Positions 7,645 through 43,368 of a stretch of DNA of 44,780 bases are shown piece after piece. This DNA is from Flammeovirgaceae bacterium BBD 1991-12 (GTDB lineage Bacteria; Bacteroidota; Bacteroidia; Cytophagales; Cyclobacteriaceae): assembly GCA_001657315.1 (NCBI GenBank), contig LYSV01000042.1:1-44780 (forward strand), written 5' to 3'. The notes under the pieces are model-generated. The model was not told where the DNA came from. It ran no database searches and saw nothing but the letters and a program-made list of their open reading frames with translations. The first letter of the stretch is position 1, and every line of letters begins with the position of its first letter. Position numbers and translations under genes: made by a program.

Positions 7645-7646
7645 AA

Positions 7647-8456: not shown

Positions 8457-8457
8457 A

Positions 8458-16765: not shown

Positions 16766-16791
16766 TATAGTATATCTTCTGCCTGTACGGC

Positions 16792-19098: not shown

Positions 19099-19215
19099 AA
19101 GTTGATACTTGATATAAAGCGCTCTCAAACTCAGGACTTTCATCAATAAAGGTAAGAATAGCAGATCCTGTATGTGTACTGCAGTATCCGGTTTGGTTGC
19201 TCCATAGAGGGCCGT

Positions 19216-19248
19216 AACCTTACTAAGTCTCAAAGGCTTAGTAAGGTT
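19216..19248. other. Perfect 12-base inverted repeat in the TlpA-GH78B gap
   Basis: AACCTTACTAAG (19216-19227) and CTTAGTAAGGTT (19237-19248) are perfect complements around a 9-base loop. The stem can extend by three more pairs on the plus strand with one G-U. It sits 17 bases after the TlpA stop on the minus strand, without a T-run on that strand. It may be a partial terminator or a processing/stability element that adjusts expression of the two rhamnosidase genes downstream. Confidence 0.6.
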
Positions 19249-19264
19249 TTCAGAACTGAAAGTA

Positions 19265-20725
19265 TCAGGTGCCGGCATCTTTGAGGGTTTCATCAATGAG
19301 CTGTCTGATCTCATTGGAAGAAGGTCCGGGTGCCACAGCATCTACAATATTCCCTCTGTGATCAAGAAGGATATACCGGGGAATGCCCCATACCCTGTAG
19401 GCTTCCCAAAAAGGTATCCGGCCGTCCTTCATAGTGGCCAGAACATGCCGGCCCGATATGTACTTATTACTTTCCAGAAATGTTCTCCATTTTGACGCAT
19501 CCTGATCAACAGAAACATTGAGAAAAACCACACGTTCCTCATCGCCGTAGAGCTCATGCAATAGTTTAGCTCCCGGAAACTCTGCAATGCAGGGTTTACA
19601 CCAGGTAGCCCATACATCCACATAGATCACCTTACCCTTAAGCCTGTGTGTAGACACCGTATCCCCTGCAACTGTAATTCCCGAGATTTCGGGCGCAGGC
19701 CTGCCAGGTTTGAGGGTCAACCACTTCTCATATACTTTTCCGAGTGATCCAAGATAAGCGGAGGAACCGTATTCTTCTTTAAATGAACCATACAGTGTAT
19801 CCAGGTCCGAAGTAATCCCCACATGACCCAACATACGGTAAATATTGTTGGCAAACAGGTACTCTTTAACCCCGGGTGGATAGTCTTCCTTCCTTATATG
19901 ATCAGCCGTTCTTTGACCGAACACATCTTCAGATAATGCTTTTTCCGCTTTGTTTTCCTCCATTAGACCAGATTGTACATTCATCAGATATGCATTCAGA
20001 ACCATAGCATATTCCAACAGTCCCTTTTTCAACATATCGTCATCCCATGGAATGCCTACTGCAGGATCAAGGTAAAGATCAGGGACCTCCAGACTTTTGT
20101 CTTTTTTAAGAGCATCCCGGTTGACCAATACATAATTCTGTCTTTTGAATGTCAGTTGCAACCGATACCGGTTCTGCAGCAATTGAGCAAGATCTTGTGA
20201 AATGTTCAGACTGTCAATAAAAGTATTATGGTATGCATTAAGGTCGGATCCAAGCTTTTCAAGCCACCTTTCAAAAGCAGTACGCTCCAGTGTCCAGAAC
20301 ATTTTATATCTTTCGGATGAGGCGCTGTCAATAATTGCCCTGGCACCCTGCCAATACTGATTCGGTGCAGCGCCCGTCCCTTCGAATTTCTTTACTTTTT
20401 TGGGTTTTTTATCATCAAGCCACATCTCAAGTTTGGTTTCAGGAGTAAGATATAATGGTATAGCATCGCCATCGATATTCATCGAGCAGAAAATGGCAGA
20501 ATCCAATTCCAGCATCATCTGTGCTGTACCGGTCGAATCCACAACCGTTTCGGCTATATTGTAAGGTTGCATGTTTAACAGGTCGTATGCATTGATCCTA
20601 ACCATCATGCCTTTCCCATCGTGCAGTCTTACGGTCACAGTGGTATGGCGGGCTGTTTCCTGTTTATTGCAACTACTATTCAATAAAAACGAAGTAAAAA
20701 CAAGCAAATAAAATCTGGCTTTCAT
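19265..20725 (-). CDS. TlpA-type thioredoxin-fold lipoprotein
   Basis: The product is 486 residues from the ATG at 20725, chosen because it gives the signal MKARFYLLVF with lipobox SSC (Cys19). The N-terminal 100 residues form a beta-rich domain like the DUF4369 type often found before Bacteroidota thioredoxins. A helical linker follows, and then a C-terminal TlpA/ResA domain with DVWATWCKPC (CKPC at about 376-379) and the cis-proline loop GIPRYILLD. It is an envelope thiol-disulfide protein. Placement between the GH43-like and GH78 genes suggests it maintains cysteines of exported PUL enzymes. It could instead support formylglycine sulfatase folding; neither role is proven by sequence. Confidence 0.88.
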   Translation of the reverse strand: MKARFYLLVFTSFLLNSSCNKQETARHTTVTVRLHDGKGMMVRINAYDLLNMQPYNIAETVVDSTGTAQMMLELDSAIFCSMNIDGDAIPLYLTPETKLEMWLDDKKPKKVKKFEGTGAAPNQYWQGARAIIDSASSERYKMFWTLERTAFERWLEKLGSDLNAYHNTFIDSLNISQDLAQLLQNRYRLQLTFKRQNYVLVNRDALKKDKSLEVPDLYLDPAVGIPWDDDMLKKGLLEYAMVLNAYLMNVQSGLMEENKAEKALSEDVFGQRTADHIRKEDYPPGVKEYLFANNIYRMLGHVGITSDLDTLYGSFKEEYGSSAYLGSLGKVYEKWLTLKPGRPAPEISGITVAGDTVSTHRLKGKVIYVDVWATWCKPCIAEFPGAKLLHELYGDEERVVFLNVSVDQDASKWRTFLESNKYISGRHVLATMKDGRIPFWEAYRVWGIPRYILLDHRGNIVDAVAPGPSSNEIRQLIDETLKDAGT

Positions 20726-20780: not shown

Positions 20781-22262
20781 TTATTTTATGATTTCCAGCT
20801 CCCATTGGTCCACCCATTTCAAAGGCTCGATCCACCCTTGTTCATTAAACCTTAGCGGTGCACTCCAGTACTGGTAATCATGTCCTTTAATATTGTCAGA
20901 GGCCGAGCCCCACAGATCTCCCATCCAAATGAACTCGGGACCCTCAGGAGTTTTCAGTTCCATAACATAGGTTTGTTGCGCCGGGATGATTGGCCTTTCT
21001 GGTACAGAAGGGCCGACAACATAGGCTCTGGCTCTACTGATTACTTCATTTTCATTTTGCAGGCTAACTTCATAAACGAAAAGCCTGTCATGATCGCGTG
21101 TTTTGGGCTGTATGGTCACCTTACTGGTACGAATGGGTTCCGTTTTAATAATTATGACTTCCCCTAATGCCTTTTTCTCTACCAACAGATTGAGAACTTT
21201 TGGGGACTTCCACTGCCCCTCATTCCAGGTCATTAATTCAAATTCGGGGGTAACGATGGGCGGATGTACGCGTGGATTGTTCACGTCCCCGCAGTTTTCC
21301 GGCCGGTTGCCTGTGAACAATGATATTTCAAGTCTGTTTACATCTTCCTTTTCAGAGAACTCTATCCGGATCCCCTGCCATTGATTTTCCAGTCGCTGCA
21401 GTTCTCCATAAACATTGCCAGTTTCGAGGCCATCTGTCAAAGCGGCTTCCGGCTTCCCCGGATAGCGGTTAATGTTGCCTGTATACCGGTAGTCTTTGAG
21501 TGGATTATCGGCCATGTATACCCGGGCACCGGAGCCATAATTGCAAAAACAACAGGTATAGTCCGTTAGCAGGTAATACTTGTTGTTCCTTTTGAACATA
21601 GAACCTGCCTCCATATGTTTGGAGATCATGCCACCGTTTTGAAGTGTCGAAGAGGTATAGTTCTCATCCAGTTTTTCTACAGATACCTGATGATCATGAA
21701 TGGTATTGTAGCTGACGTAGGCTGTTCCATCGTCATCAACAAACAGGCCCAGGTCCCCTAGCCCGAGATGGCTGTTGGCCATGGGCACATTGTCATTCAG
21801 GATCACAAAAGGTCCCTCTGGGTTGTCACTGGTGGCCACGGCAAACTGACCCTTCCAAAGGGTGGGATACCAGTTGTACCAAAGCACATATTTTCGTGTT
21901 TTTTTATTGTAGATCACATGGGGTCTGTAATAAACACCTTCCGGCTGATGAGGGAGCAGTGCCCCTTCCTTTTGCCAATTCATCAGGTCTGCAGAGCTGT
22001 AGCATACATAACGGTTCGCCGTTGTGAATCCGTTTGTATTCCCATACCGGGTACCGTACCAGTAGAATTTGCCTTCAAACTGAATAACTCTGCCGTCATG
22101 TGCATCTATGATCTCACCCTGATCGTCCAGCCTTGGCTTGATGTTATTGACGGTTATTGTTTGCTGGCAGTACAGGTTGAAAGCCGGTAAAACGAAAGTA
22201 AGGAGCAGCAGAGCATTGAATCTTTCGGAGAGTTGCCTGCTCTTTTTGTCAATCTCCTTCAT
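20781..22262 (-). CDS. GH43-like five-bladed beta-propeller glycosidase
   Basis: The product is 493 residues if the ATG at 22262 is used, which overlaps the upstream sulfatase stop by 14 bases; a longer frame overlaps it more. An N-terminal hydrophobic stretch (LLLLTFVLPAF) is a signal peptide without a lipobox. The propeller has IIDAHDGRVI (51-60) with the candidate base Asp56, FYWYGTRYG, a YYRPHVIYN segment, DLGLFVDDDGTAYV (about 170-183) with the pKa-adjusting Asp, and KHMEAGSMFKRN with the candidate acid Glu218. The IYN/KYVLWYNW context resembles subfamily 24 exo-beta-1,3-galactanases more than arabinofuranosidases. The last 200 residues are a beta-rich region of unknown role. The substrate is uncertain, perhaps galactan or arabinogalactan side chains. 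Confidence 0.75.
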   Translation of the reverse strand: MKEIDKKSRQLSERFNALLLLTFVLPAFNLYCQQTITVNNIKPRLDDQGEIIDAHDGRVIQFEGKFYWYGTRYGNTNGFTTANRYVCYSSADLMNWQKEGALLPHQPEGVYYRPHVIYNKKTRKYVLWYNWYPTLWKGQFAVATSDNPEGPFVILNDNVPMANSHLGLGDLGLFVDDDGTAYVSYNTIHDHQVSVEKLDENYTSSTLQNGGMISKHMEAGSMFKRNNKYYLLTDYTCCFCNYGSGARVYMADNPLKDYRYTGNINRYPGKPEAALTDGLETGNVYGELQRLENQWQGIRIEFSEKEDVNRLEISLFTGNRPENCGDVNNPRVHPPIVTPEFELMTWNEGQWKSPKVLNLLVEKKALGEVIIIKTEPIRTSKVTIQPKTRDHDRLFVYEVSLQNENEVISRARAYVVGPSVPERPIIPAQQTYVMELKTPEGPEFIWMGDLWGSASDNIKGHDYQYWSAPLRFNEQGWIEPLKWVDQWELEIIK

Positions 22263-23658
22263 AATCGGGGTTGGGTACCGGTTCCTGTGCATTGTATCTT
22301 GACTTCCAGGCATTAAGCTCTTTCAGCAATTGATCTGTCACTATCGGTTGTGATCCGCTGAGATCATAGGTCTCTGAAGGATCATTTTCAAGATCATACA
22401 GCTCCACCCGCTCATCTTCATAGAAAAAAAGTAATTTATATTTTCCCTTTCTTATGGCAGAGGCCGGTTTGCCCCGTTGTGGTGAGTAGTGAGGCACATG
22501 CCACACAATAGCACGTTCTCCGGCAGAGCCATCAATGGCGTGCAGCAGACTTCTTCCACCCGAGGTTCTGTCTGACTTACCCAGAATATCACTGAAAGTA
22601 GCATAAAGGTCAGTCCCAACTACCGGATAATCTATCACCTGGCTTATCAGTTTTTGCGGCCAGTGAACGATCATCGGGACCCTGATCCCTCCCTCATACA
22701 GATAGCCCTTTCCTTTTGCCAGAGGGCCATTGTCCGTAGGTGGAGTATGCTTGGCAAAGGCAGGGACTTCCCTGACAGATAGTCCTCCATTATCGGAGGT
22801 AAACACAATAAGGGTATTGTCAAATTTATCCTGTACTTTCAGCTCACTGACCAAACGGCCTATGTTCCTGTCAATGGATTCTACCATGGCGGCATAATGA
22901 GGGTCTGGCAGGCCTGTTTCCCCACCGCGTTTAGCCACGTACTTGTCCACCAGGTCCGCAGGACCCTCGATGGGCACATGAGGAGAATAAAAGGAAAGCA
23001 TCATAAAAAAGGTGTCCTTCTGAGCGATACGGGCAATAGCACGATCGGTCAACTTGTCGGTAAGATAGTCCCCCTCTTCCGAATCAGACTTAATATCCTC
23101 CATGGCATGATTAAAAAAAGGATAAAAGAACGAGTTGGGTAGCCCGTGGTAGTTGGCAGCATAGGCAAAGTCAAACCCCTGGGTTTTGGGCCCGGCAGAA
23201 CCTCCTCCCAGGTGCCATTTGCCGATATAGTCTGTGTGATAACCTTCCCTTTTCATCATTTCCCCAACGGTATAGAACTCTGATCGAAGCGCCTGGTCAA
23301 TATCCGGTGTGATCAGGGGAATAGCGGGTGAGGGACGGAAAGGACCATGTATATGCTCCGTAATGTTCACCTCCACCGGGTGCAGCCCGGTGAGTATGCT
23401 GGCCCGTGAAGGACTACACAATGAAGCGGGAGCGTAGGCATTGGTAAACCGTACTCCTCCTTCAGCCAAAGCGTCAAGATTGGGAGTTTCAATAAAATCA
23501 CTGCCGTAGCTGCCCAGATCGTACCATCCCATATCATCTGCTATAATAAGGATGACGTTGGGTTTAACCTGTGAAGCTTCTTCATTGCCATGGGAACATG
23601 CCAGCAGGCCTATCGCCAAAACAGTCAGCAGCAGAAATTGTACAATGGTGTTTTTCAT
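22249..23658 (-). CDS. Family S1 sulfatase (canonical formylglycine motif)
   Basis: A 469-residue lipoprotein with lipobox LLAC (Cys21). NVILIIADDMGW carries the calcium-binding Asp pair, and the active-site motif is CSPSRASILTG with Cys81 converted to formylglycine by an anaerobic or aerobic maturase encoded elsewhere. Further family signatures are GKWHLGG, VFTSDNGG and the ending VELYDLENDPSET. It removes a sulfate ester from a glycan outside the cytoplasm. It lies 17 bases after the second sulfatase and overlaps the GH43-like gene, so all are in one transcript. The sequence does not reveal which sulfate position is attacked. No maturase is encoded in the window. Confidence 0.93.
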   Translation of the reverse strand: MKNTIVQFLLLTVLAIGLLACSHGNEEASQVKPNVILIIADDMGWYDLGSYGSDFIETPNLDALAEGGVRFTNAYAPASLCSPSRASILTGLHPVEVNITEHIHGPFRPSPAIPLITPDIDQALRSEFYTVGEMMKREGYHTDYIGKWHLGGGSAGPKTQGFDFAYAANYHGLPNSFFYPFFNHAMEDIKSDSEEGDYLTDKLTDRAIARIAQKDTFFMMLSFYSPHVPIEGPADLVDKYVAKRGGETGLPDPHYAAMVESIDRNIGRLVSELKVQDKFDNTLIVFTSDNGGLSVREVPAFAKHTPPTDNGPLAKGKGYLYEGGIRVPMIVHWPQKLISQVIDYPVVGTDLYATFSDILGKSDRTSGGRSLLHAIDGSAGERAIVWHVPHYSPQRGKPASAIRKGKYKLLFFYEDERVELYDLENDPSETYDLSGSQPIVTDQLLKELNAWKSRYNAQEPVPNPDYEGD

Positions 23659-25276: not shown

Positions 25277-28200
25277 TTATTTCAGCAGAACCAGCCGTTT
25301 GGTTACACTCGCTCCACCCTGACTTAGCCGGTACAGATAAACGCCGTTCTTTAAACGGTTCCCTTTTCCGTCCTCACCATCCCACGTGACTGTATATGAG
25401 CCCGGCAGGGCATATTCATGATCAAGGTTTAAAACTACCCGGCCCGTCATATCGAGTACGGCCAGTCTGGTTGCCCCCGGTTTATCCAACGTGTAGGAAA
25501 TGGTAGTCGTGTGATCAAATGGATTCGGATAATTGTGGAGTTTAAATGTATTGCCCGGCAAATCCTCAATACCCGTCACTTCACCACCATCACCGGTGGG
25601 CGCTACTGACTCATAGGTCGTACCGAATCTTATCTCATCAATGGCAAGGAGTGTCTCCACTACCGGATTTGCACTTTCATTCTTTATCATGAAGCCCTGG
25701 AAACCCTGATTGAGTGCAGTGGTCAGCAATACAATATCTGCATCACCCTTGTCAGGCTCAACTTCCGGGTTATGATCAATCCACAGGTAAACCGTATCGG
25801 GCTCTTCATCCCCGGTAAATTCCAGCTTACTGAGTAGCCATTTGGTACCTCCGGACATTGGCACGGTAGAGTTGGCCCCGTCCCCTGACCTGTTAAAAAT
25901 ACCGATCTGATCCACGCCAAAGTTCTTCCCAAGGCCGATCCTCTGGGCGTTGTTGCCCGAAAAATCGCGATAGTTAGTCAAAAACAGGAAAGTAACGTTA
26001 CTTTGGCCGTCGGATGAAAAATCTGCAAAAAAACTCAGCCAGTAATCCGATCCGTCATCCTCTACAAAAGTAGCCAGGTCACGTTCCGGCCTTACTTTGG
26101 TAGCCGTATTATGATTCAGCAGTACATGGTTGCCGTCTGTCTGAAGGCTCGAGCCATTGCTCAGGCTCCCCTCCTGAATCAGGGATTCTCCGCCACCATC
26201 AAAACCAGTCCTCCATGGCCCTTTCCACTGTGAACCTTCAGGTCCCTGTCCGGCCAAGGGATCACCTACACCATATTTGAACTGGTCCCTTGCGATAGTA
26301 TTCTCCGGAACCTCTTCCTCTATTTTTGAGATGTCTGCATAGGTAAACCCAATTCTGAACTCGTCAACGGACATGGCGAAAGGCGCACTGCCTACAGCCT
26401 TTATACGTATTCCGGTAAAACCGTCATTGATGGTCAGTCTTTTTTCAGAGTCTGGCGTGGTAAATACAGATGCCTGGTTCAGGACCGGTTGAAATTCAGG
26501 AATAGGATCTACCCACATATAAATGGACTCTGCCTCATCATCACCTGACATATCCAACCTGACCACGATCCAGTGCCTGCCTTCTGACGGGGTATCGGAT
26601 ATGAATTCAAACACCTCAGGGTCCCACGTGAACCCGATCCGGTTAAATCCGCTGGTACGCCCAAAGCCGATCACCTCTTCGGTACCGTCCATCAAGACCA
26701 GCTGGCCCTCTGTACTTATTTTCTCCAATTGCTCAAAATCCATGAGCCAGCTCATCCAGAGGGTTTGGCCCTGATCTTCAAAGCGTGCCTTGAAAGGCCG
26801 GTCATACCTTACCTCTTCACTGGTATATGCTATGGAAGCCCTGTTACCTTCAAACACGGCAAATTCAGTCTCGATACTTCCTTCATTGATTACCGCAAGG
26901 TCACCTGAGGTTCTGGACCATGATCCACCCCAGCCTTCTCCTGAGGTCCCCTGACCTTCAAGCTGACTATCAAAGGTGTAGCTGAAGGGTTCATGAGCCA
27001 CCTCCGGCAGGTTCAGAGGAACAAGATCAGTAAGATCATCCGGGACAATGTCATTGTAGCTGTTCCCGATATACAGGTTGTCCACCACTGCTCTCAACGT
27101 GGATGCAGGCCCGGATACTTTCATAATAATACTATTCCATCCGTCATTGAGTACAGTAGTGCCCATTTTGGCAAGCGCCATTTCGTTGGCAGGCTCCGTT
27201 AATGGATCAGGGTCCATAAAGATCCTTATGGTATCGGCAGCGTCATCTCCGCTCATCTCAATTTTCATGACAGCCCAACGGGTAGTATCACCTTCCACAC
27301 CTGCATCGATCGTTTGAGGACCGGTGAACACCTTGAAGTTTTTGCTGTCGAAGTTAATACCTGCCCTTATGGGCTGACCTGCCGGGCCGCTGGCCCCAAA
27401 GGTGGCAGAATCACCCAATATCACCTGAAACACCTCTCCGGTTGAGGCCAGATCGGCCTTGTACCAAAATCCAAGCCAATAGGTACGACCGTTATCCAGA
27501 TAGGCTGTTTCCAGTCCCCGCACCAACCTTACATCGTCAGCAGTATTGATGTGATCAAGCTCCAGCGCATTACCGCCGGTAGATCTGATATTGTAGAAAT
27601 TCTGAATGCTGTCGTTCACTACTGAAGCCGTACCAATGGTACTCTTCCAGGGGCCATTCCAGCCGTCCTGCTTGCCACCCAGCGAAGTGGTTTCATTGAC
27701 CACCTCACCAGCTGTATAATCGAACCGGTCAAATGCCGGCTTTGGCGGAAGATTCGCGAACACCAGATCATCCGGGGTCACTTCATCAAAACTATTACCG
27801 ACGTACAGATTGTCCAGTACAGCCCACAGCGTATTGGTAGGGCCTTCATTTTTGATAATGATCCCGTTAAAACCATCATTCAGGGCTGTAGTCCCCATTT
27901 TGGTAGCAGCCTGATCGTCAGCAGGTTCCATACCCGGTACAGGGTCAACAAATACCCTGATGGTGTCGGCTTCAGCGTTTCCGGTGGTTTCCACTTTCAA
28001 TACTACCCAATGGGTGGTGTCCCCGGGAACACCGGCATCCACGGTCTGCGCAGCAGTGAAAAGCCTCAGATTACGACTGTCAAAGTTGATTCCGGCCCTG
28101 ACAAGCTGCCCTCCGGCACCCGTGGCTGCAAGCTGATTCACATCGCCCAGCATCACCTGGAACACCTCGCCCTGAGTGCCCAGTACTGCCTTGTACCAAA

Positions 28201-29998
28201 ACCCCATCCAATAGGTACGTCCATTGTCCAGATAGGGTGTTTCAAATTCTCTCGATAGCCGGATATTTCCGGTGTTGGCTACAATGTGATCCAGTTCCAT
28301 GGCATTGCCGGTGGTAGAGCGCACATTGTAGAAATTTTCAATACTGTCAGTTTCGATGGTCGCTGTGCCCGCTACACTCGTCCAGGGGCCAGCCCAGCCG
28401 TTTTCCGCAGCACCTAACGGATTACCCGGATCAAGCACTGTGCCCGATGAATAGGAAAATTTGTCAAAAGCCGGAGTAGGTGCGGTGGGTAAAACGGCAA
28501 GATCATCTGGAACCACCTCAAGGTAGGACAATCCCAGGTAGATATCATCAACAAGCGCTTCCAGCGTGGTGGGACTTCCTGACGCTTTCATACCTATGGC
28601 TTTCCAGCCACCATTGAGTTTATCTGCATCAAACTTCAGTATTTCCTCTCCTACCTGCGGCTCCACATTCGGATCCGGATTCAGGAAAAGCCTTACCGTA
28701 TCCTTATCTGCTGTGCCGTTGGTTTCTATTCTGGCCACATACCAGTTGGCCTGATTAGCCAGTCCCGGGACCGTATTGAAGGTACAGCACGGTTTTCCAA
28801 GGCCGATATCTTCGTTATCAAACATTTTACCAAACAATACGAATTGCCCGGCTGCGCCACCGGCCCCCATTGTTTCCGTGTCATTATTCACCAAACCAAC
28901 GTTCATAACGTTCCCGTTGGAAGCACCGCTGATGTCAGCAAAAAAGCTGAACCAATAGGTAAGCCCGTTGTCTTCATAAGTCTCGGCCAGATCGCGTTTA
29001 ATACGCGTTTCTCCTGACAGGGTCATCAGAAAAGCGTTTGGAGATGTACTTCGCACTATGGCATCACTCGAGATACTGTCGTTTACTACATTCAGGGGTC
29101 CGGGGCTGGTAACGAATTCCCATGCTCCGCCCCAGCCATCTGTGGCCGTTCCCTGTCCCTCCAGATTGGTACTGGCAGCATAATCGAATTTTTCAGCTAC
29201 AGGCCTGTATTTCGGTACGGTATTGGTACCTGTAGGGACAACATCTGCATAATTATTCCCCAGTATCAGGTTGTCATAGACCGTCCTGATCCCGGCGGAG
29301 CCTTCATTTTTTATAAATATCCCATCAAACCCACTATTCAGGGCATTGGTTGTGAAGGATGCATCGGCCATGGTGTTTGCCGGCTCGCTGGCAGGATCAG
29401 GATTGATGAATAAATAAACAGTGTCATCACTACCATCACCCGAAAATTCAACCTTAGCCACTACCCAGTGTGTACCCTCGGCCTTCAGTCCCGCTGAGCG
29501 GTTGTTTCCGCTATTAAGCCCTACACCAAAACTCATACCATCGCCTTGTGCCACCTTGCCAAAGATGATCAGCTGACCGCCTGGTCCCGTAGGAGCTGTA
29601 GCCGCTGTATTGGCAAACGCCACTACACTGGCATTCCCTCCCCCAGGCCCCTCATAAAAGGCGTCAAAGGCCAGCCAGTAGGTATTCCCGTCATCAGTGA
29701 CAGGAGTAGCCAGTTGTCTGTCCATTCTGACATCATCACCAGCCGTAAGGTAGTCAACATCCAGAGCGGTACCTGTGGCAATTCCTGTTCTGTAATTTTT
29801 GATGGAATCGGCCACGATCATCTTATCATCACCAACGATGATCTCCCAGCCGGCAGCCCAGCCGGTACCCCCCATTCCTCCACCTATGGTATTTCCTGCA
29901 GGATAACTATCGAAATTCTCTGAAGCGATCACCTGTGCCTGCATTTGTGACATTGAAAAACAGGTGAGCAGTAGATATAGTAAAATTCTAGTGAGCAT
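25277..29998 (-). CDS. Secreted six-repeat jelly-roll-like protein with type IX sorting domain
   Basis: The product is 1573 residues with a cleavable signal peptide ending near MQAQ. Six tandem repeats of about 225-240 residues follow (about 23-256, 268-500, 510-745, 755-990, 1001-1226, 1237-1468). Each opens with an F(D/S)Y...GWxGxW block. It then has a TYWLxFxxx strand, an HWxVxKxExxGxxxxDTxxxFxxPxPxxEP segment, and ends in IxxKxxG...DNLxxGxSYxxVxPDDL. The pattern suggests concanavalin/LamG-like beta-sandwich domains. Residues about 1486-1573 form a Por/type IX C-terminal domain (HNYPNPF, then GVYLYRL and KRLVLLK), so the protein is exported to the surface or medium. There is no catalytic signature. 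It directly follows SusD, the usual slot for a surface glycan-binding protein, so a multivalent glycan-binding role is likely but not demonstrated. Confidence 0.85.
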   Translation of the reverse strand: MLTRILLYLLLTCFSMSQMQAQVIASENFDSYPAGNTIGGGMGGTGWAAGWEIIVGDDKMIVADSIKNYRTGIATGTALDVDYLTAGDDVRMDRQLATPVTDDGNTYWLAFDAFYEGPGGGNASVVAFANTAATAPTGPGGQLIIFGKVAQGDGMSFGVGLNSGNNRSAGLKAEGTHWVVAKVEFSGDGSDDTVYLFINPDPASEPANTMADASFTTNALNSGFDGIFIKNEGSAGIRTVYDNLILGNNYADVVPTGTNTVPKYRPVAEKFDYAASTNLEGQGTATDGWGGAWEFVTSPGPLNVVNDSISSDAIVRSTSPNAFLMTLSGETRIKRDLAETYEDNGLTYWFSFFADISGASNGNVMNVGLVNNDTETMGAGGAAGQFVLFGKMFDNEDIGLGKPCCTFNTVPGLANQANWYVARIETNGTADKDTVRLFLNPDPNVEPQVGEEILKFDADKLNGGWKAIGMKASGSPTTLEALVDDIYLGLSYLEVVPDDLAVLPTAPTPAFDKFSYSSGTVLDPGNPLGAAENGWAGPWTSVAGTATIETDSIENFYNVRSTTGNAMELDHIVANTGNIRLSREFETPYLDNGRTYWMGFWYKAVLGTQGEVFQVMLGDVNQLAATGAGGQLVRAGINFDSRNLRLFTAAQTVDAGVPGDTTHWVVLKVETTGNAEADTIRVFVDPVPGMEPADDQAATKMGTTALNDGFNGIIIKNEGPTNTLWAVLDNLYVGNSFDEVTPDDLVFANLPPKPAFDRFDYTAGEVVNETTSLGGKQDGWNGPWKSTIGTASVVNDSIQNFYNIRSTGGNALELDHINTADDVRLVRGLETAYLDNGRTYWLGFWYKADLASTGEVFQVILGDSATFGASGPAGQPIRAGINFDSKNFKVFTGPQTIDAGVEGDTTRWAVMKIEMSGDDAADTIRIFMDPDPLTEPANEMALAKMGTTVLNDGWNSIIMKVSGPASTLRAVVDNLYIGNSYNDIVPDDLTDLVPLNLPEVAHEPFSYTFDSQLEGQGTSGEGWGGSWSRTSGDLAVINEGSIETEFAVFEGNRASIAYTSEEVRYDRPFKARFEDQGQTLWMSWLMDFEQLEKISTEGQLVLMDGTEEVIGFGRTSGFNRIGFTWDPEVFEFISDTPSEGRHWIVVRLDMSGDDEAESIYMWVDPIPEFQPVLNQASVFTTPDSEKRLTINDGFTGIRIKAVGSAPFAMSVDEFRIGFTYADISKIEEEVPENTIARDQFKYGVGDPLAGQGPEGSQWKGPWRTGFDGGGESLIQEGSLSNGSSLQTDGNHVLLNHNTATKVRPERDLATFVEDDGSDYWLSFFADFSSDGQSNVTFLFLTNYRDFSGNNAQRIGLGKNFGVDQIGIFNRSGDGANSTVPMSGGTKWLLSKLEFTGDEEPDTVYLWIDHNPEVEPDKGDADIVLLTTALNQGFQGFMIKNESANPVVETLLAIDEIRFGTTYESVAPTGDGGEVTGIEDLPGNTFKLHNYPNPFDHTTTISYTLDKPGATRLAVLDMTGRVVLNLDHEYALPGSYTVTWDGEDGKGNRLKNGVYLYRLSQGGASVTKRLVLLK

Positions 29999-30022: not shown

Positions 30023-31534
30023 TTATTTCCAGGGATCGGACTGTTCTGTTCCAAACTGAATGACCTGACTTGAGGGAACAGGAAGGACCGTTCGTATATC
30101 CAGGTAGGCCTCTTCCAGAACCGTTTCCTTTTCGTCCTTCTGCCGGATACCATGTGCTGTCATCACCTGTGCAACCCTGCCGGTTCTGAGCAGGTCGAAC
30201 CATCTGTGGTTCTCGAAGGCCAGTTCCAGTCGCCTTTCCCTGTAGATGGCTTCACGCAATTCATCCTGTGTGGAAACCACAAGATCGGGGTCAGTACTTA
30301 CATCGGATAAAGGGGGGATGCCTGCTCTAAGCCGGATCACGTTGACAATTCCTATGGCATTCTGATCCAGAGGATTTACCTCGTTGTAGGACTCTGCCAA
30401 CATGAGCAGAGCGTCTGCATAACGGAACATAGGCCAGTTGACATCCTGGGCACCAATATCTTCAAACTCATAGGCATATTTGCCCAGATAAGGTATGGTG
30501 TCATTGTCACTATCATCCGCCTCGTTGTTGAGTACTACATAGTTGGCAATGCTTACGTCTTTTCGCACGTCACCTTCCCGGTACAGCGACATGATGTCGG
30601 TGGTCGGCTGGTTAAGCCCGGCCCGGGAGTTGGCATTCTGTCCCAACCCGAGAATATCCGTGCCACTGTTCCAGGGAACAAAACTGGAAAGGAAGTTGGA
30701 GGACTGGTTCAGCTCAAAAGAGTACTGGATCTCAAAGACTGATTCCCGGTGATTTTTGTTGTCAGGATTGAATATCGCTTCATAGTCATCAAGCAGTTCA
30801 TAGCCCAGTGTAGTAACCTCTTCCAAAAGAGGTATGGCCGCCGCAAAGTTCTGTTCCGCCATGTACATTTTCGCCCTCAACATCAGTGCGGCTCCTTTGG
30901 AGGCCCTGCCTACATCGGAAGGCCCCCACTGAGGTAAGATATCAATGGCCTTTTCCATATCGGAATGAATACTGTCATAGATCACGGAGCCGGATATCTT
31001 TTCGGTAAAGGTGCTTGTATAACCCTCATCGGCCGTAGTGATGATAGCATTGGACAGAGGTACATCACCCCACAGCTGGACGAGAATAAAATAGAACCAC
31101 GAGCGGAAAAACAAGGCCTCCGCCCTTCTTATCTCTTTCGTTTCATTGCTGACAAAATCGATACCGTCTATCTGAAGCAGGACATAATTACATCTGGAAA
31201 TACCGCTATACAGAGCATTCCAGAATTCAGAAACCCGGCCATTACTTGGGTCCATCAAAAACAGGTCTATCGCTTCAGTGTTGAAACCTCCACGATCTCC
31301 CGGATTAAAGAAAAACGAAGTGTTGTCTGACCTCATCTCGCCAAACTGCCACATCAGACTGTTGAACAGAGATCTGTTCCTATTGTAAATAGCCGCTACT
31401 GAACGGTCAATATCATCTTCACTGTTGTAGAAATCAGTGGGTGTAATGAATGTTTCCGGGGTCACCTCCAGAAAGTCCTCACAACCAACAATGCCTATAC
31501 CGAGTATGAGTAGTGTTATACTTATTTTTTTCAT
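30023..31534 (-). CDS. SusD/RagB-family surface glycan-binding lipoprotein
   Basis: The 503-residue protein has lipobox IVGC (Cys18) followed by EDFLEVTPET, the usual SusD opening. The TPR-like helical body contains LFFRSWFYFILVQLWGDVPL and, later, YADALLMLAESYNEV and YRERRLELAFENHRWFDLLRTG, all hallmark SusD segments. The C-terminus LPVPSSQVIQF is also typical. It caps the SusC transporter at the outer membrane and binds the incoming oligosaccharide. The gap to SusC is 10 bases and to the downstream repeat-protein gene 24 bases, so all three are co-transcribed. The ligand is not deducible from sequence. Confidence 0.95.
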   Translation of the reverse strand: MKKISITLLILGIGIVGCEDFLEVTPETFITPTDFYNSEDDIDRSVAAIYNRNRSLFNSLMWQFGEMRSDNTSFFFNPGDRGGFNTEAIDLFLMDPSNGRVSEFWNALYSGISRCNYVLLQIDGIDFVSNETKEIRRAEALFFRSWFYFILVQLWGDVPLSNAIITTADEGYTSTFTEKISGSVIYDSIHSDMEKAIDILPQWGPSDVGRASKGAALMLRAKMYMAEQNFAAAIPLLEEVTTLGYELLDDYEAIFNPDNKNHRESVFEIQYSFELNQSSNFLSSFVPWNSGTDILGLGQNANSRAGLNQPTTDIMSLYREGDVRKDVSIANYVVLNNEADDSDNDTIPYLGKYAYEFEDIGAQDVNWPMFRYADALLMLAESYNEVNPLDQNAIGIVNVIRLRAGIPPLSDVSTDPDLVVSTQDELREAIYRERRLELAFENHRWFDLLRTGRVAQVMTAHGIRQKDEKETVLEEAYLDIRTVLPVPSSQVIQFGTEQSDPWK

Positions 31535-31544
31535 GGCTCTTAGA

Positions 31545-34500
31545 TTAAAAAGTTACATTAAAACCAAGTGTATACACCCGGGATATGGGATACTGTCCGT
31601 TGTTCACATTTCTTACCAGCGCATTATCACCTACACGGCCTATTTCCGGGTTACCCCGGTCATATTCGCTGAACACTACCGGGTTCTGGACACTGGCATA
31701 GATCCTGGCGGATGTCAGGAAATTGCCGAACTGGCCCCTGGGCAGATTATAGCCCAGTGTTATGTTCCTCACAAACAGGTAGCTGGCATCAAAGACACTG
31801 CTGGAGCTGGGTATACGCCAGCGATTGGTCTGTCCTACCGTGGTGGGGATCCGTTTTGTTGTGGGGTCATCTCCAGGCCGGTACCGGTCCTTTACTTCGG
31901 AATGTAAATTGAAAACACCATCAAAATTACTCATCACTTCCCGTCTCAGCTCAAAGATCTGCTGTCCCAACGCTCCTGACATGACTATTCTCAGATCGAA
32001 GTTGTCATACCGGAAGTTATGGGTCATGCCAAACAGCAGGTCCGGCAGCGGGTCACCGATGACATCATAATCCTCAAACTGTTCCAGCCGGCCATCGCCA
32101 TCAACGTCCAGATATTTGATGGAACCTACCTGTGCGCCGGCGTATTTCGGTACGTCAGGATCATTGATCTCTTCCTCGGTAAATAGTCCGGTCACTACAA
32201 GTCCGTAGAACTGTCCTACCGGCTCACCTTCCTGAGTGATGGTAAATTGAGTACCGTTACCGGCAGCGCCCCGGAATAAGGTGTTGTCAATTTCCACTAC
32301 CTCGTTAATGTTCCGTGTAAAGTTCATGTTCACGTCATAGGTGAACTTTCCTGATCTCACGAGGTCAGTAGTACCGATCTCTACCTCTATGCCCTTGTTG
32401 ATGATGGTTCCGGAATTGTCGAGGATGGAGGCAAAGCCGGTAGTCCTTGGTAGCGGCAGGCTGGTCAGAAAATCTCTTGACTCCGTTCGGTAGAGGTCGA
32501 TCCCAATATTGAACTTATTGGTAAAAAGGCCTACATCCAGGCCAATGTCCAACTGCTCGGATACCTCCCAGGTGGTTTCAGAAGCCGGTACGGAAGAAAC
32601 AAAATTGCCCAGAACCTGCTCACCCCCAATGACATAATCGGCGCGATCCACTCTTCCCTGTGCCTGGAAATTGCCTATCCCATTGTTACCGGTCAGTCCA
32701 TAGCCTACTTCAAGCTTCAGTTCACTGATCACGTTGTACAGGCCAGAATTCTGGAAAAACCCTTCAGAGGAGATACGCCATGCCGCTGAGGCTGCCGGGA
32801 AGTTGGCAAATCTAACATCCTCACCAAATCTGGAAGACCCGTCTCTGCGATAGGCTACGGTGAAATAGTACTTGTCTCTGAAGGAATAATTCAGTCTGGA
32901 AATAAATGAAAGCAGAGCATTGCCTTCGAACCCTCCTCCTCCTGTAAAATTGGCTACATTGTCCTGTGCAGTATTTCCTGAAGCAGGAATGATCAGGCTC
33001 TCATCCAGTATATTGCGTGATGAAACTGTAGTGCTTTCAGACTGCCTGTCTTCAAATGTCACCCCTACGAGCCCGGTAATACTGTGATCTTCCCGGATCG
33101 TTCTTTCATAAGTCAGTGTATTCTCATTGATAAAGTTAAAGTTGGCCAAGTCAGTTATTCCTGCTGTAGCCACTCCACTGCCGTTCACATTAGGTGTAAG
33201 ATTCTGGCCCGGCAGAAATGAAGGCCTGAAAGATCTGGTCCTTCGGTCAGTATAGAATACATTCAGCGTACTTTTGGCCGTTAGGCCGGGTATGAATTCA
33301 ACCTGCAGGAAATTACTCAGCAGTACCTGATTTGTCCGGGCTTTACCAAAGGTCTGCGTCAACTGCGCCACAGGGGAGGCGGTATAAAAGGGAAGCAGCT
33401 CACCCAGGGTGGTGTTGGCAAGAGTGCCATCCGGGTTTTTAACAGTGGCGGAAGGGTCTGCCCAGTAGCTGGAAGCCAGAGCACTGTAAACACTAAACTG
33501 CCCGGTCCCTGAGATTGCGCCGGAAATATTCCTGATCGCATGCGAGGGAGCTATACTTATTCCGTACCGTATTTTATCATTGATCTTTACATTAACGTTT
33601 GCCCTGAAATTATACCGCTTAAAGTCGGTATTGATGAGTGTGCCCTCCTGATCCAGATAACTGGCCGTGACAGCGTACTGAACGTTATCATTACCACCTG
33701 TGATGCTGATATTGTAGTTCTGCTGTGCTGCGGTACGTGTAATTTCGTCAAACCAGTTAGTACCCTCGCCGTATTTTTCGGGATTCCGGAATTGTTCAGG
33801 TATATCTTCTTCCGTGGGCTCTCTCCCTTCCAGCACACGGATGTTATCAATGATCCTCTCCTGCTGAAATTGTGCCAGCTCAGTGGCATTTAAAACATCC
33901 GGCTTTTCGTAATCGGGTATTTCCTGAATACCCACGTAACTATTGAAAGCAATCTTCGGCCTCCCCTTTTTACCTTGTTTGGTTTTAATGATGATCACAC
34001 CACCTGCTGCACGGGAGCCATATATGGCTTTTGACGTAGCGTCTTTCAATACACTGATGGACTCGATCTCATCCGGTGAAATGGAACCCAGCACAAAATT
34101 GTCTGACTTGTTATCGGCATTTCCCAAAGGAAACCCGTCAACAACAAAAAGAGGAGCATTACTGGTGCCGATGGAGCCTATCCCTCTGATCAGAACCTCA
34201 GGCCCGCCGCCGGGTAAACCTGTCTGCCGTATTTGCAAGCCGGAGATCTGACCGGAAAGTGCCTGTTCGAATGTTGTAATGGGCAGCTCTTCTATTTGGC
34301 GGGATTCTATCTGCGATACTGCCCCTACCAGATCCTTTTTTTGCTCCTCTCCATAGCCGATCACCACTACCTCAGTAAGTGTGGTTATATCGGGATAAAG
34401 AGTCGTGTTAATGATGGACTGACCGCTGATCTCAATCTCCTCCGTAGTATAACCAATAAACGAGAAAACAAGAACGGTCGCATCATCCGGGATAGACAGT

Positions 34501-35096
34501 GTGTAATTCCCGTCAACATCCGAGACCGTGCCTATGGACGTGTCTTTGACCAGTACATTGGCCCCGGGCTGTGGCTCTCCGTTCTCATCAAGTACCTTTC
34601 CGGTAATGATCCTTTCCTGCAAACGTTTACGACCTGCAGTAAAAAATTTTTCCGCACTTTCAACTGGTAATACAAGCCTGCCGCGGTTAACTGATCCGCC
34701 TTCCAGAGTTAACTGTTTACGGGGAATTTTGCTGAGCTCATCTGAAGGAACGGCTAAAGGTTTCACTATATATTCCTTCTCACCTACACGCGTATAGGCA
34801 AGCCCGTGAGGACTTAACAGCTTTTCGAGTGTTGCATCTATACCCTGCCCTTCAATAAACTCTGCCTTTACCGTCTTGTCCTTTGCTATCTTGCTTTGAA
34901 AAATGATGTTGACGTCGAACCTGCGCTCGATATCGTTCAGTGCTTTCTTAAGTGAAAGATACCGCGATACCGGCCTATGCTGTGTTTCCAGTACGTCGAC
35001 CGCATTGGAAACGACCTGCGAACCCGCATCTATGGAAAGCAGTAGAAATACTGCCATCCAAAGGATTGTAAAATGCTGTGGTAAAACTTTTATCAT
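31545..35096 (-). CDS. SusC/RagA-family TonB-dependent transporter with STN domain
   Basis: An outer-membrane importer of 1183 residues for oligosaccharides. After a signal peptide there is a secretin/TonB N-terminal (STN) domain (about 45-112; LKKALNDIERRFDVNIIF), the domain that relays substrate signal to a FecR anti-sigma factor. A CarboxypepD-regulatory-like domain (about 162-232; VLDENGEPQPGANVLV) follows, then the plug (EVVVIGYGEEQKKDLVGAV) and a long beta-barrel ending in the aromatic YTLGFNVTF. The STN domain fits with the FecR and ECF sigma genes immediately upstream (28 bases to FecR), so import is probably self-inducing. Confidence 0.96.
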   Translation of the reverse strand: MIKVLPQHFTILWMAVFLLLSIDAGSQVVSNAVDVLETQHRPVSRYLSLKKALNDIERRFDVNIIFQSKIAKDKTVKAEFIEGQGIDATLEKLLSPHGLAYTRVGEKEYIVKPLAVPSDELSKIPRKQLTLEGGSVNRGRLVLPVESAEKFFTAGRKRLQERIITGKVLDENGEPQPGANVLVKDTSIGTVSDVDGNYTLSIPDDATVLVFSFIGYTTEEIEISGQSIINTTLYPDITTLTEVVVIGYGEEQKKDLVGAVSQIESRQIEELPITTFEQALSGQISGLQIRQTGLPGGGPEVLIRGIGSIGTSNAPLFVVDGFPLGNADNKSDNFVLGSISPDEIESISVLKDATSKAIYGSRAAGGVIIIKTKQGKKGRPKIAFNSYVGIQEIPDYEKPDVLNATELAQFQQERIIDNIRVLEGREPTEEDIPEQFRNPEKYGEGTNWFDEITRTAAQQNYNISITGGNDNVQYAVTASYLDQEGTLINTDFKRYNFRANVNVKINDKIRYGISIAPSHAIRNISGAISGTGQFSVYSALASSYWADPSATVKNPDGTLANTTLGELLPFYTASPVAQLTQTFGKARTNQVLLSNFLQVEFIPGLTAKSTLNVFYTDRRTRSFRPSFLPGQNLTPNVNGSGVATAGITDLANFNFINENTLTYERTIREDHSITGLVGVTFEDRQSESTTVSSRNILDESLIIPASGNTAQDNVANFTGGGGFEGNALLSFISRLNYSFRDKYYFTVAYRRDGSSRFGEDVRFANFPAASAAWRISSEGFFQNSGLYNVISELKLEVGYGLTGNNGIGNFQAQGRVDRADYVIGGEQVLGNFVSSVPASETTWEVSEQLDIGLDVGLFTNKFNIGIDLYRTESRDFLTSLPLPRTTGFASILDNSGTIINKGIEVEIGTTDLVRSGKFTYDVNMNFTRNINEVVEIDNTLFRGAAGNGTQFTITQEGEPVGQFYGLVVTGLFTEEEINDPDVPKYAGAQVGSIKYLDVDGDGRLEQFEDYDVIGDPLPDLLFGMTHNFRYDNFDLRIVMSGALGQQIFELRREVMSNFDGVFNLHSEVKDRYRPGDDPTTKRIPTTVGQTNRWRIPSSSSVFDASYLFVRNITLGYNLPRGQFGNFLTSARIYASVQNPVVFSEYDRGNPEIGRVGDNALVRNVNNGQYPISRVYTLGFNVTF

Positions 35097-35124: not shown

Positions 35125-36159
35125 TTAATTCTTTATGATGATATGTCCGTCTTTGGTCTCTATCGTCTTGTCAATGGACTCGGAAATCACGGCCAGAAAA
35201 GTGTCCAGGCTTTCTGTTGAGACTGTACCGGTTAGTCTTATATTCCGCATTTTGCGGCTTTCAAAAATCACCTTCAGGCCATAGTTCTCTTCAATGATCT
35301 CCGCCACCTCGGTGAGGGTGGTCTCTTCAAAATAAAGCCTGTGATCTTTCCAGGAGGTAAACCGGGCCGGGTCTACTTTTTTTCTGACCAGCTCACTGTT
35401 TGATGAGGTGTACCGGATCAGATCTCCTGGCTGCATGATCATTTTAGCGGTATCCCTTTCATTCGGGATCTGTAGGGAGATCGTTCCGGTAGCCAGTACT
35501 ACTTCAGGAATTTCCCTGCGGTTACTTACATTAAAGCTGGTACCCAGGACCTCTATATTGACAGCACCAGAGTGTACGAGAAATCTCTTGAAAGCCATAG
35601 AATCGTCACGGACACGATGTTTGGCTTTCTTTACATCAAAAAAACCTTCTCCGCGCAGCCAGACTTCCCGGATTGGTGTATTGTCCCAGTTGCTGCTATG
35701 TTCCAATGAAGAATTCGCATTGAGGGTAACAACGGAATGGTCCGGCAGGACTACTGATCTGGTCTCACCAAAACCAGTGGTATAAGTGACCATATGAGGA
35801 GTGGACCACTCCTTATAAAGCAGGAACGTAGCCATCATAAGGATGATCATAGCCGCCACACTCATCCATTTTTTCCACATCCCTGCTGAATTTTTGGAAG
35901 TCTCCGTACCTGAGCCTATTTCCGCATCAATTCTTGTCTTGACATCCCGAAATTCCTTTGGTGAGGGCCTGAGTGAGTTGAAGTCCAGGGCTCTGACCAA
36001 TTGGCGGGCTTCTTCTATCACCTCTTTTTTCTCAGGATGCTTTTCTATCCAATCCTGCCAGAAGGTGTTCGATTCTGTTGTTGGTGACTGTACCCACTGG
36101 ATGAAATAGTCATCCAGTGCGAAATCGTGTGCCGTGAAAAACCGATAATGCTTACTCAT
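35125..36159 (-). CDS. FecR-family anti-sigma factor
   Basis: The product is 344 residues from the ATG at 36159; 16 further codons upstream remain in frame but lack features. A cytoplasmic N-terminal part (FALDDYFIQWV..., HPEKKEVIEEARQLV) contacts the sigma factor. A single membrane helix lies at about 95-112 (MSVAAMIILMMATFLLY). The periplasmic FecR domain contains YTTGFGETRSVVLPDHSVVTLNANSSLEHS and VWLRGEGFFDVKK. A C-terminal STN-like domain (FEETTLTEVAEIIEENYGLKV) contacts the transporter. It should hold back the adjacent ECF sigma until SusC imports its ligand. Confidence 0.95.
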   Translation of the reverse strand: MSKHYRFFTAHDFALDDYFIQWVQSPTTESNTFWQDWIEKHPEKKEVIEEARQLVRALDFNSLRPSPKEFRDVKTRIDAEIGSGTETSKNSAGMWKKWMSVAAMIILMMATFLLYKEWSTPHMVTYTTGFGETRSVVLPDHSVVTLNANSSLEHSSNWDNTPIREVWLRGEGFFDVKKAKHRVRDDSMAFKRFLVHSGAVNIEVLGTSFNVSNRREIPEVVLATGTISLQIPNERDTAKMIMQPGDLIRYTSSNSELVRKKVDPARFTSWKDHRLYFEETTLTEVAEIIEENYGLKVIFESRKMRNIRLTGTVSTESLDTFLAVISESIDKTIETKDGHIIIKN

Positions 36160-36495
36160 TACTTTCCTGTTTTTCGTGAGGGTATTTTTCCGGAGATGAT
36201 CCAGCATCTCCCTTACTCAAGACCACTGTGACCAATTGATACACTGTGATCAGCGTCTTTCTACTGCTATAGTGGAAGCGTAGTATTTAAATGCCCTCAA
36301 CTTTTTTTGATTTTTTTAAATAGGTAATGAACCTACTTTATAAAAAGGGATTGAAGATGGTAATGGATTCCTGCCGGAATATTGCTTTGATGATGCGATG
36401 TCCTGTGATTTCGCCCGAAACATCGTACATCACTGATAGCCGCGTGTTCAGACATGGAATACATGAAATAATACCTGATGTGAACCGAATAGTGT
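36160..36495. promoter_or_regulatory. Leader region between ECF sigma and FecR
   Basis: This 336-base gap carries the probable promoter for the fecR-susCD operon. Two direct copies of CACTGTGA, at 36224-36231 and 36242-36249 with an 18-base period, lie 65-90 bases upstream of the FecR start. AT-rich runs at 36301-36325 and a small inverted repeat TAGGT/ACCTA near 36321-36335 are also seen. No gene is supported here. Confidence 0.4.
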
Positions 36496-39715: not shown

Positions 39716-39875
39716 ACCCGTTTACCTTTTTCGCGCTAAAGTAATGAGATTTTTAATCAAAAAAAGAAATTTCCATTTATTGGTGCTATATTAAATTTTA
39801 CGGGTCCACAGCATAGTACAGGATAGACCTGGCATACGGGGTAGATACTTTTGGTTAAGTTCAAAATTGTATAAA
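39716..39875. promoter_or_regulatory. Divergent promoter region of the rhamnose genes
   Basis: This 160-base gap separates the regulator and aldolase genes. It contains ATATTAAATTT (39788-39798). Its reverse complement occurs at 42014-42024 before the isomerase gene, and both sites are followed within about 30 bases by TACAGGA. A short inverted repeat CAGG/CCTG (39819-39831) is also present. Any of these could be operator elements, but AT-rich matches of this length can arise by chance. Confidence 0.4.
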
Positions 39876-41981: not shown

Positions 41982-42082
41982 GCAAGGTGCCGGATGGCTA
42001 ATATATCATAGTTAAATTTAATATACAGGAAGCTGACCATTACTCCTTAATAACCAATAACTTAATACACTCAATAACTACA

Positions 42083-43366: not shown

Positions 43367-43368
43367 CT

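What the first reader, a model, noticed from the sequence alone, without database searches (positions are those of the whole stretch)
25277..29998. Six-repeat type IX-secreted protein in the position of a surface glycan-binding protein
A 1573-residue protein made almost only of six jelly-roll-like repeats plus a type IX sorting domain directly follows SusD. Repeats 3 and 4 (510-745 and 755-990) are clearly the most alike, indicating recent duplication, while 5 and 6 are more divergent. No hydrolase signature is seen. It could be a new class of multivalent glycan-binding or adhesion protein tied to a PUL, released or anchored by the Por system rather than as a lipoprotein like SusE/F.
Basis: partly seen in the sequence, partly recalled or inferred. 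Interest (0 to 1): 0.75.

Follow-up and report, generated by a model that had tools for sequence, protein, structure and literature searches.

The report
Six-domain secreted glycan-catcher beside SusCD
A large bacterial surface protein built from six copies of an unnamed domain with a sugar-binding-type fold sits in the gene slot for polysaccharide-catching proteins, and probably holds sulfated rhamnose-rich polysaccharide at the cell surface for import.

Summary
ORF 25277-29998 is on the minus strand and encodes 1573 aa: a likely Sec signal peptide, six homologous domains of about 240 aa, and a type A T9SS sorting domain. It starts 24 nt after susD. No Pfam or NCBIfam family matches the domains above cut-off.

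Two predicted domains have the concanavalin-A-like jelly-roll fold of L-type lectins, X122 domains and PL20 lyases. I found no conserved catalytic signature.

Seven such proteins (3-6 domains, five genomes) were found. All seven lie directly after susC-susD and carry the T9SS tail. The window and the four relative clusters examined have sulfatases and GH78-type rhamnosidases. In one, a related domain is fused to a T9SS sulfatase. In the own genome, a remote copy sits in a lipoprotein-like protein behind a SusD fragment and a sulfatase.

Best reading: a multivalent surface glycan-binding protein (SGBP-B role) for a sulfated, rhamnose-rich glycan, exported by T9SS instead of lipid-anchored. No binding was measured. 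New variant of a known kind. Corrections: the R3/R4 duplication is lineage-specific but not recent; remote single copies occur outside PULs and in another phylum; three other T9SS-tailed genes follow SusD in this genome, so the export route is not unique.

The parts
25277..29998 (-). six-repeat T9SS protein, 1573 aa (candidate SGBP-B)
29933..29998 (-). likely Sec signal peptide, residues 1-22, no lipobox
   Evidence: read by eye; lipobox pattern absent; no signal-peptide predictor was available
29207..29929 (-). repeat R1 (first-position class)
28478..29206 (-). repeat R2 (middle class)
27743..28477 (-). repeat R3 (middle class, pair with R4); modelled, ConA-like fold
27005..27742 (-). repeat R4 (middle class, pair with R3)
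26300..27004 (-). repeat R5 (penultimate class); modelled, ConA-like fold at lower confidence
25559..26299 (-). repeat R6 (last class)
25289..25531 (-). type A T9SS C-terminal sorting domain
   Evidence: TIGR04183 37.4 bits, cut-off 23
30023..31534 (-). SusD-like protein
   Evidence: PF07980 5.8e-33, PF14322 1.5e-23
31545..35096 (-). SusC-like TonB-dependent transporter with FecR_C-like (and weakly STN-like) N-terminal extension
   Evidence: TIGR04056 804.9 bits; PF16344 1.1e-6, PF07660 0.012 below cut-off
35125..36207 (-). FecR-like anti-sigma factor
   Evidence: PF04773, PF16344
36496..37197 (-). ECF-type sigma factor
   Evidence: PF08281, PF04542
23676..25154 (-). sulfatase
   Evidence: PF00884 5.7e-55
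22249..23658 (-). sulfatase
   Evidence: PF00884 3.9e-55
20781..22313 (-). GH43-like protein
   Evidence: PF04616 5.2e-12; 66% identical homologue in the G012 cluster
16792..19341 (-). GH78-type alpha-L-rhamnosidase
   Evidence: PF17389 2.4e-37
13997..16795 (-). GH78-type alpha-L-rhamnosidase
   Evidence: PF17389 6.2e-71, PF08531 4.1e-53
3915..5426 (-). alpha-L-fucosidase (GH29-type)
   Evidence: PF01120 5.3e-93
6103..7671 (-). alpha-L-fucosidase (GH29-type)
   Evidence: PF01120 1.6e-97
7647..8492 (-). L-rhamnose mutarotase-like protein
   Evidence: PF05336 1.8e-18
39867..44766 (+). three sugar-catabolism genes: class II aldolase/SDR fusion, xylose-isomerase-like barrel (below Pfam cut-off), FGGY kinase; reads as L-rhamnose catabolism
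   Evidence: the L-rhamnose assignment is by recall

Best explanation
It is a multivalent surface glycan-binding protein filling the SGBP-B (SusE-like) role of a PUL for a sulfated, rhamnose-rich polysaccharide. Six tandem ConA-like domains, carried through the outer membrane by the type IX system and kept at the surface by its sortase, bind many points on one polymer chain. This concentrates the chain next to SusC-SusD and the PUL's surface enzymes, so that sulfatases, rhamnosidases and the transporter can work on it. Shown here by sequence: the domain array, the T9SS tail, the place after SusCD in seven of seven homologues found, the shared gene content. Supported by prediction: the fold. 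Inferred: glycan binding, the substrate, surface retention rather than release, and avidity as the reason for the repeats.
For: Seven of seven multi-repeat proteins found (window; G013 two; G012 two; G071; G379) are the same-strand gene directly after susC-susD, with 17-37 nt between genes in six and about 156 nt in one when the likely ATG is taken (worked out from the coordinates and the sequence starts). All seven have TIGR04183 above the cut-off of 23 bits. The genome has two PorU-type sortases above the curated cut-off. R3 model: pLDDT 79.9, pTM 0.82; its best PDB matches are PL20 TrGL, TtX122B and many L-type lectins. R5, pLDDT 63.3 and pTM 0.70, gives calreticulin and TtX122B. In G379 a domain that groups with its R6 is fused to a T9SS-tailed sulfatase, about 12 kb from the six-repeat gene, the layout of a CBM. 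In the own genome a remote copy makes up the C-terminal part of a 400-aa lipoprotein-like protein next to a sulfatase and a SusD fragment. Sulfatase and GH78-type genes follow the repeat gene in four relative clusters examined: second G013 gene, three-repeat G012 gene, G071, G379, as in the window.
Against: No binding datum exists. Domains of similar fold (TtX122A and TtX122B) showed neither clear enzyme activity nor significant binding to plant cell walls (PMC10916295, passages and section 2.6 read). Gene position does not prove a binding-only role: two SusE-like proteins were reported with galactosidase activity (PMC8211771, abstract read). None of 18 fetched neighbourhoods of remote single-domain relatives held a SusD by my profile, so the domain is not intrinsically a PUL part. 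The two other relative clusters (first G013 gene, five-repeat G012 gene) were not scanned for sulfatase or GH78 genes. The SusD-fragment association of the own-genome remote copy rests on one contig end.
Confidence: 0.66

Rival explanations
1. The repeats are enzymes (an uncharacterised lyase or hydrolase of the jelly-roll superfamily) arrayed six times, as PL20, PL7 or GH16 domains share the fold.
For: Top Foldseek match of R3 is PL20 glucuronan lyase. SusE-like proteins with reported activity exist (PMC8211771, abstract). No polysaccharide lyase was recognised among the 27 window proteins scanned with Pfam, so an endo-acting enzyme could be missing.
Against: Among columns where one residue reaches 75% of the 38 domains compared there is no His or Gln. 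Two of the three conserved acid positions (5 and 222 of R3) are as conserved in 26 remote single domains, so look structural; only D84 is specific to the group. No GH16-type motif in 7 of 7. No enzyme match above a cut-off.
Confidence: 0.1
2. It is a T9SS surface adhesin or scaffold (for algal or bacterial surfaces, biofilm, or protein partners), co-transcribed with the PUL but not part of glycan capture for import.
For: Large repetitive T9SS proteins often act as adhesins (recalled). Three other SusD-following T9SS proteins of the genome carry CBM96/CBM35/fn3, Big_7/LamG and F5/8C/fn3 modules, which would also suit adhesins.
Against: Seven of seven found are tied to susCD; a related domain is fused to a sulfatase. 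Adhesins would not be expected to follow susD each time.
Confidence: 0.14
3. It is a fully released, soluble glycan-binding protein that works away from the cell (like soluble ChiA of F. johnsoniae, but non-catalytic).
For: T9SS cargo can be released: ChiA is secreted in soluble form (PMC5127042, passages read).
Against: A soluble catcher would not concentrate substrate at SusCD (inference); type A tails are generally sortase substrates attached to the surface (recalled).
Confidence: 0.1

Closest known systems
SGBP-B / SusE-like surface glycan-binding proteins (e.g. SGBPlev Bt1761, SusE/SusF)
   Same: gene after susC-susD, predicted export to the surface, several beta-rich domains, no enzyme signature, glycan-linked operon
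   Different: SGBPlev is N-terminally lipidated with three domains (PMC7618045, passages); this one has no lipobox, a T9SS tail, and six copies of one ConA-like domain
CHU_1279 of Cytophaga hutchinsonii (SGBP-B-like, two CBM-like domains)
   Same: tandem beta-sandwich protein of a Bacteroidota PUL-like cluster (PMC12016534, abstract and passages read)
   Different: two domains, cellulose, cluster without a SusD homologue; no sequence comparison made here
X122 domains (TtX122A/B) and Cip1
   Same: TtX122B has a similar fold to the R3 and R5 models, about 230-240 aa, function unnamed, near carbohydrate metabolism (PMC10916295, PMC3764139, passages)
   Different: no sequence match to these PDB chains; the conserved His residues described for X122 and Cip1 have no counterpart among the conserved columns of the repeats
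T9SS-secreted multimodular PUL enzymes (ChiA; Chitinophaga pinensis fungal-cell-wall PUL)
   Same: T9SS tail on a PUL-encoded extracellular multidomain protein (PMC5127042, PMC10449523, passages read)
   Different: those are catalytic; here no catalytic domain was recognised

Membership tests
SGBP-B / SusE-like surface glycan-binding protein | encoded directly downstream of a susC-susD pair | tested here: met
   7 of 7 multi-repeat proteins found
SGBP-B / SusE-like surface glycan-binding protein | exported to the outer surface | tested here: inconclusive
   T9SS type A tail in 7 of 7 and sortases in the own genome; location not measured
SGBP-B / SusE-like surface glycan-binding protein | N-terminal lipid anchor (usual in described members, not a functional requirement) | tested here: not met
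   no lipobox in 6 of 7, including the window protein; a weak ITAC motif inside the signal peptide of G379. Hence filed as working like an SGBP-B, not as a canonical member
SGBP-B / SusE-like surface glycan-binding protein | binds the PUL's glycan | not testable with these tools
   needs protein
Concanavalin-A-like lectin/glucanase fold | beta-sandwich jelly-roll of this topology | tested here: met
   R3 and R5 models, Foldseek hits to L-type lectins, calreticulin, PL20, GH16; TM by query length 0.28-0.56 in the two lists of 50, so a fold-level match only
Laminin_G / LamG Pfam families | profile match above the gathering score | tested here: not met
   no LamG hit for the whole protein, nor among the families listed for 25 and 39 domains scanned singly
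PL20 / jelly-roll lyases | conserved catalytic residues in the cleft | tested here: inconclusive
   no conserved His or Gln among columns at 75% or more; Arg76 is conserved but also in most remote relatives. Which residues PL20 needs is recalled, and no residue-level superposition was available
T9SS type A cargo | C-terminal sorting domain | tested here: met
   TIGR04183 above cut-off, 7 of 7

The most novel reading that the evidence does not exclude
The domain is a new carbohydrate-binding family. Bacteroidota build an accordion-like multivalent SGBP from it: fixed first, penultimate and last domains with a freely amplified middle. They deliver it by T9SS rather than as a lipoprotein, part of a wider and little-noticed use of T9SS proteins in the SusE slot. 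In one lineage a related domain is fused to a sulfatase near the same PUL.
Probability: 0.45. Interest if true: 0.68.

Novelty: new variant of a known kind. Interest (0 to 1): 0.52.

Why it matters
SGBPs are usually described as lipoproteins. A T9SS-exported, six-domain protein repeatedly found in the SusE slot would show a second way to build and anchor glycan catchers, suited to very long sulfated polymers. It also gives an unnamed domain, with a clear test substrate class, for a possible new carbohydrate-binding family.

Tried and rejected
Rejected: the genome-contig hit L037 (Phycisphaerae) as a relative. The match lies in a lipoprotein-like ORF without the domain; a profile search of that whole genome finds nothing at E up to 10. 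L037 was not in the file scanned; it was scanned and gave no hit.

Rejected: 'recent duplication' of R3/R4. Rejected: a sequence-level link to a solved structure; the best match of the broad profile is the C-terminal part of GH98 enzymes at E 0.012, and of the narrow profile a CRISPR protein at 0.21, both treated as unproven.

Rejected: any meaning in the botulinum/tetanus neurotoxin binding-domain (and NTNH) hits of Foldseek.

Led nowhere: promoter/terminator scan (14 promoter-like sites against 15.5 expected, 14 terminator-like against 10.3); paper search on PEP-CTERM, LamG, Planctomycetes and jellyroll (none).

Weaknesses: my SusD profile for neighbourhoods was built from five close SusDs and missed the SusD fragment at the end of contig C75 that PF07980 finds, so '0 of 18 near SusD' may be too low. 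18 of the 26 divergent-copy genomes were fetched; several stretches were cut by contig ends, and one (L129) gave no domain hit in my rescan. In G012 contig C49 a divergent copy lies about 3 kb from a SusCD pair on the other strand. The genome searches score only the first 7-9 candidates per genome and draw samples, so their counts are lower bounds; the order and class samples did not report the known positives G012, G013 and G071. For the remote set I used 26 of the 36 remote domains listed; 10 (partial, short or near-duplicate) were dropped. Residue numbers printed are 6 too high for R3. The branch of G379 R5 is long (2.08) and its place unsure.

Full report
What is there. The ORF at 25277-29998 is on the minus strand, 1573 aa. 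By eye residues 1-22 are a Sec signal peptide; no lipobox is present. Six domains of about 240 aa fill residues 24-1480, and residues 1490-1570 match the T9SS type A sorting domain TIGR04183 at 37.4 bits against a cut-off of 23. In leave-one-out tests each domain is found by a profile of the other five at E between 1e-41 and 1e-88, far beyond 200 shuffles of each. R3 and R4 are 59% identical, other pairs 26-39%. Third codon positions of R3/R4 agree in only 45% of 243 codons, so that duplication is not recent.

Setting. On the same strand, upstream to downstream: ECF-type sigma factor, FecR, SusC (with an N-terminal FecR_C-like extension), SusD, the six-repeat gene, two sulfatases, a GH43-like protein, a thioredoxin-like protein, two GH78-type rhamnosidases; further on dehydrogenases, a symporter, a rhamnose mutarotase-like protein and two GH29-type fucosidases. 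Genes on the plus strand to the right include an aldolase/SDR fusion, a xylose-isomerase-like protein and an FGGY kinase. The gap SusD to repeat gene is 24 nt. I read the cluster as a PUL for a sulfated rhamnose-rich polysaccharide; that is inference, and no polysaccharide lyase was recognised among the 27 window proteins scanned.

Relatives. A sequence search of 58 related genomes found full-length relatives only in two same-genus genomes, G012 and G013; the other listed matches (the list was cut) lie in about the C-terminal 200 residues, nearly all in the T9SS tail. A 25-domain profile (A1) matched 4 of 295 genomes of the family (E up to 1e-3). At E up to 1e-15 it matched 1 of 291 of the order and 2 of 395 of the class. 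At E up to 1e-3 it matched 28 of 395 of the phylum. Each of these counts includes the window's own genome. In the phylum of the Phycisphaerae genome G701 it matched 18 of 294. Samples overlap between calls, and only 7-9 candidates per genome were scored, so these are lower bounds. Strong, multi-domain matches occur in five genomes: own (6), G013 (6 and 5), G012 (5 and 3), G071 (6), G379 (6). All seven are the same-strand gene directly after susC-susD. SusC and SusD were checked by Pfam for the window and the G012 and G013 pairs; for G071 SusC by Pfam and SusD by my profile; for G379 both by my profile only. All seven bear TIGR04183 over the cut-off. The other matches are weak, mostly single domains in proteins of other architecture. 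In 18 fetched neighbourhoods of such proteins (of 26 genomes) none had a SusD by my profile (limits under Tried and rejected).

Evolution of the array. In a maximum-likelihood tree of 38 domains, domains group mostly by position rather than by protein: first domains (5 rows, 98/96), middle ones (13 rows, 96/95), penultimate ones (7 rows, 99/98) and last ones (6 rows, 99/98). The three-repeat G012 protein has a first, a penultimate-class and a last-class domain; its first domain's place is open in the tree. Middle domains were multiplied separately: R3/R4 of the window pair (96/83) and group with R3 of the G013 five-repeat protein (100/99), and the first four domains of G379 form their own group (100/100), against the positional pattern. 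Domain number thus changes mainly in the middle. The last domain of G379 groups (98/91) with a domain fused to a T9SS-tailed sulfatase about 12 kb away.

Gene content of the relatives. Sulfatase and GH78-type genes follow the repeat gene in the G071 and G379 clusters, the second G013 cluster and the three-repeat G012 cluster, four of four examined; GH2-type genes occur in G071 and G012. G379 also has an FGGY kinase and an isomerase-like gene close to the sulfatase fusion. The five-repeat G012 cluster has a homologue of the window's GH43-like protein, 66% identical. G013 and G071 share a 559-563-aa protein right after the six-repeat gene, 55% identical, without a Pfam match at the thresholds used; the G013 one resembles a glucuronoarabinoxylan endoxylanase chain in the PDB at 4.4e-6.

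Fold and site. With only the six window repeats as alignment, R3 gives pLDDT 79.9, pTM 0.82 and R5 gives 63.3, 0.70. Foldseek against the PDB: R3 best matches PL20 glucuronan lyase 2zzj (E 7.5e-7, TM 0.56), with TtX122B and L-type lectins among the top hits; R5 matches calreticulin, TtX122B and lectins. So the fold is ConA-like; TM by query length of 0.28-0.56 in the two lists says fold, not family. Among columns where one residue reaches 75% of 38 domains there is no His or Gln. D/E5, Y9, W32 and D222 (R3 numbering) are about equally conserved in 26 remote domains and look structural. R73 (30 of 38), D84 (36), Y89 (31), W157 (38) and N200 (35) are found in 4-12% of the remote ones and so mark the multi-repeat and sulfatase-linked group. 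These are candidates for a site; no model coordinates were available to see whether they cluster.

Is T9SS in the SusE slot unusual? The own genome has 61 PF07980 hits. For 60 a next gene could be read, two of them cut by contig ends; 50 lie within 200 nt. Among the 60, TIGR04183 is found in three at E up to 1e-5 (which names only the window protein; my own tail profile and Pfam point to the other two), and a fourth has the CHU_C tail. The three besides the window gene carry CBM96/CBM35/fn3 (2373 aa), Big_7/LamG (1072 aa) and F5/8C/fn3 (892 aa), with no catalytic-domain match above a cut-off. Of the 50 close followers a rough rule of the 46 without a T9SS tail lipoproteins, and one of the four tailed ones too, probably falsely. 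So T9SS export in this slot is a minority arrangement, 4 of 50, not unique. In the same genome a remote copy of the domain forms the C-terminal part of a 400-aa protein with a lipobox-like start, behind a sulfatase and a SusD fragment at a contig end.

Literature. Searches. Among the titles and abstract starts listed I saw none describing a T9SS-exported, non-catalytic protein in the SusE slot; this covers only the held open-access library and those terms. Seen: PMC10916295 (passages; section 2.6 whole), PMC12016534 (outline, abstract, passages), PMC12611786, PMC5127042, PMC3764139, PMC10449523 and PMC7618045 (passages only), PMC8211771 (outline and abstract). Two points count against easy certainty: TtX122 domains of similar fold showed neither clear activity nor plant cell-wall binding, and some SusE-like proteins are reported as enzymes.

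Verdict. It is a new variant of a known kind (SGBP-B-like role with an unnamed domain, unusual copy number and T9SS export), not a new category.

Noticed in passing
L170 (G000:C160:2196-10549): A 2373-aa T9SS-tailed protein with CBM96, CBM35, fn3 and CARDB matches follows another SusD 91 nt downstream.
   Followed up: partly
L187 (G000:C33:6778-15125) and L154 (G000:C152:2587-11465): Two more SusD followers carry T9SS tails: Big_7 plus Laminin_G_3 (1072 aa) and F5/8C plus fn3 with CHU_C (892 aa).
   Followed up: partly
L074:9783-10985 (G000:C75): 400-aa lipoprotein-like protein whose C-terminal part is a remote copy of the repeat, between a sulfatase and a T9SS-tailed Glyco_hydro_cc protein, behind a SusD fragment at the contig end.
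   Followed up: yes
L126:9723-12707 (G379): T9SS-tailed sulfatase with a domain of this family at residues 664-908; a second match before it is not significant (E 10).
   Followed up: partly
L038-L040 (G013) and L041-L043 (G012): Each genome holds two susC-susD-repeat-gene sets within about 23 kb; in G013 a FecR-type protein precedes the second SusC.
   Followed up: partly
L039:8815-10506 and L076:9360-11039: A pair of 55% identical 559-563-aa proteins after the repeat gene, no Pfam match at the thresholds used; the first is distantly like an endoxylanase of the PDB: possible endo-acting enzyme.
   Followed up: partly
L110, L114, L119, L123 (genomes of the phylum of G701): The domain sits at the C-terminal end of proteins that by eye look like FecR-type or other membrane-anchored regulators.
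   Followed up: no
L109, L112 (phylum of G701): Single-domain proteins ending in what reads by eye as a PEP-CTERM tail, so the domain may also occur with another sorting signal.
   Followed up: no
L146, L147 (G000:C276, C50): Two PorU-type sortases above the curated cut-off in one genome.
   Followed up: no
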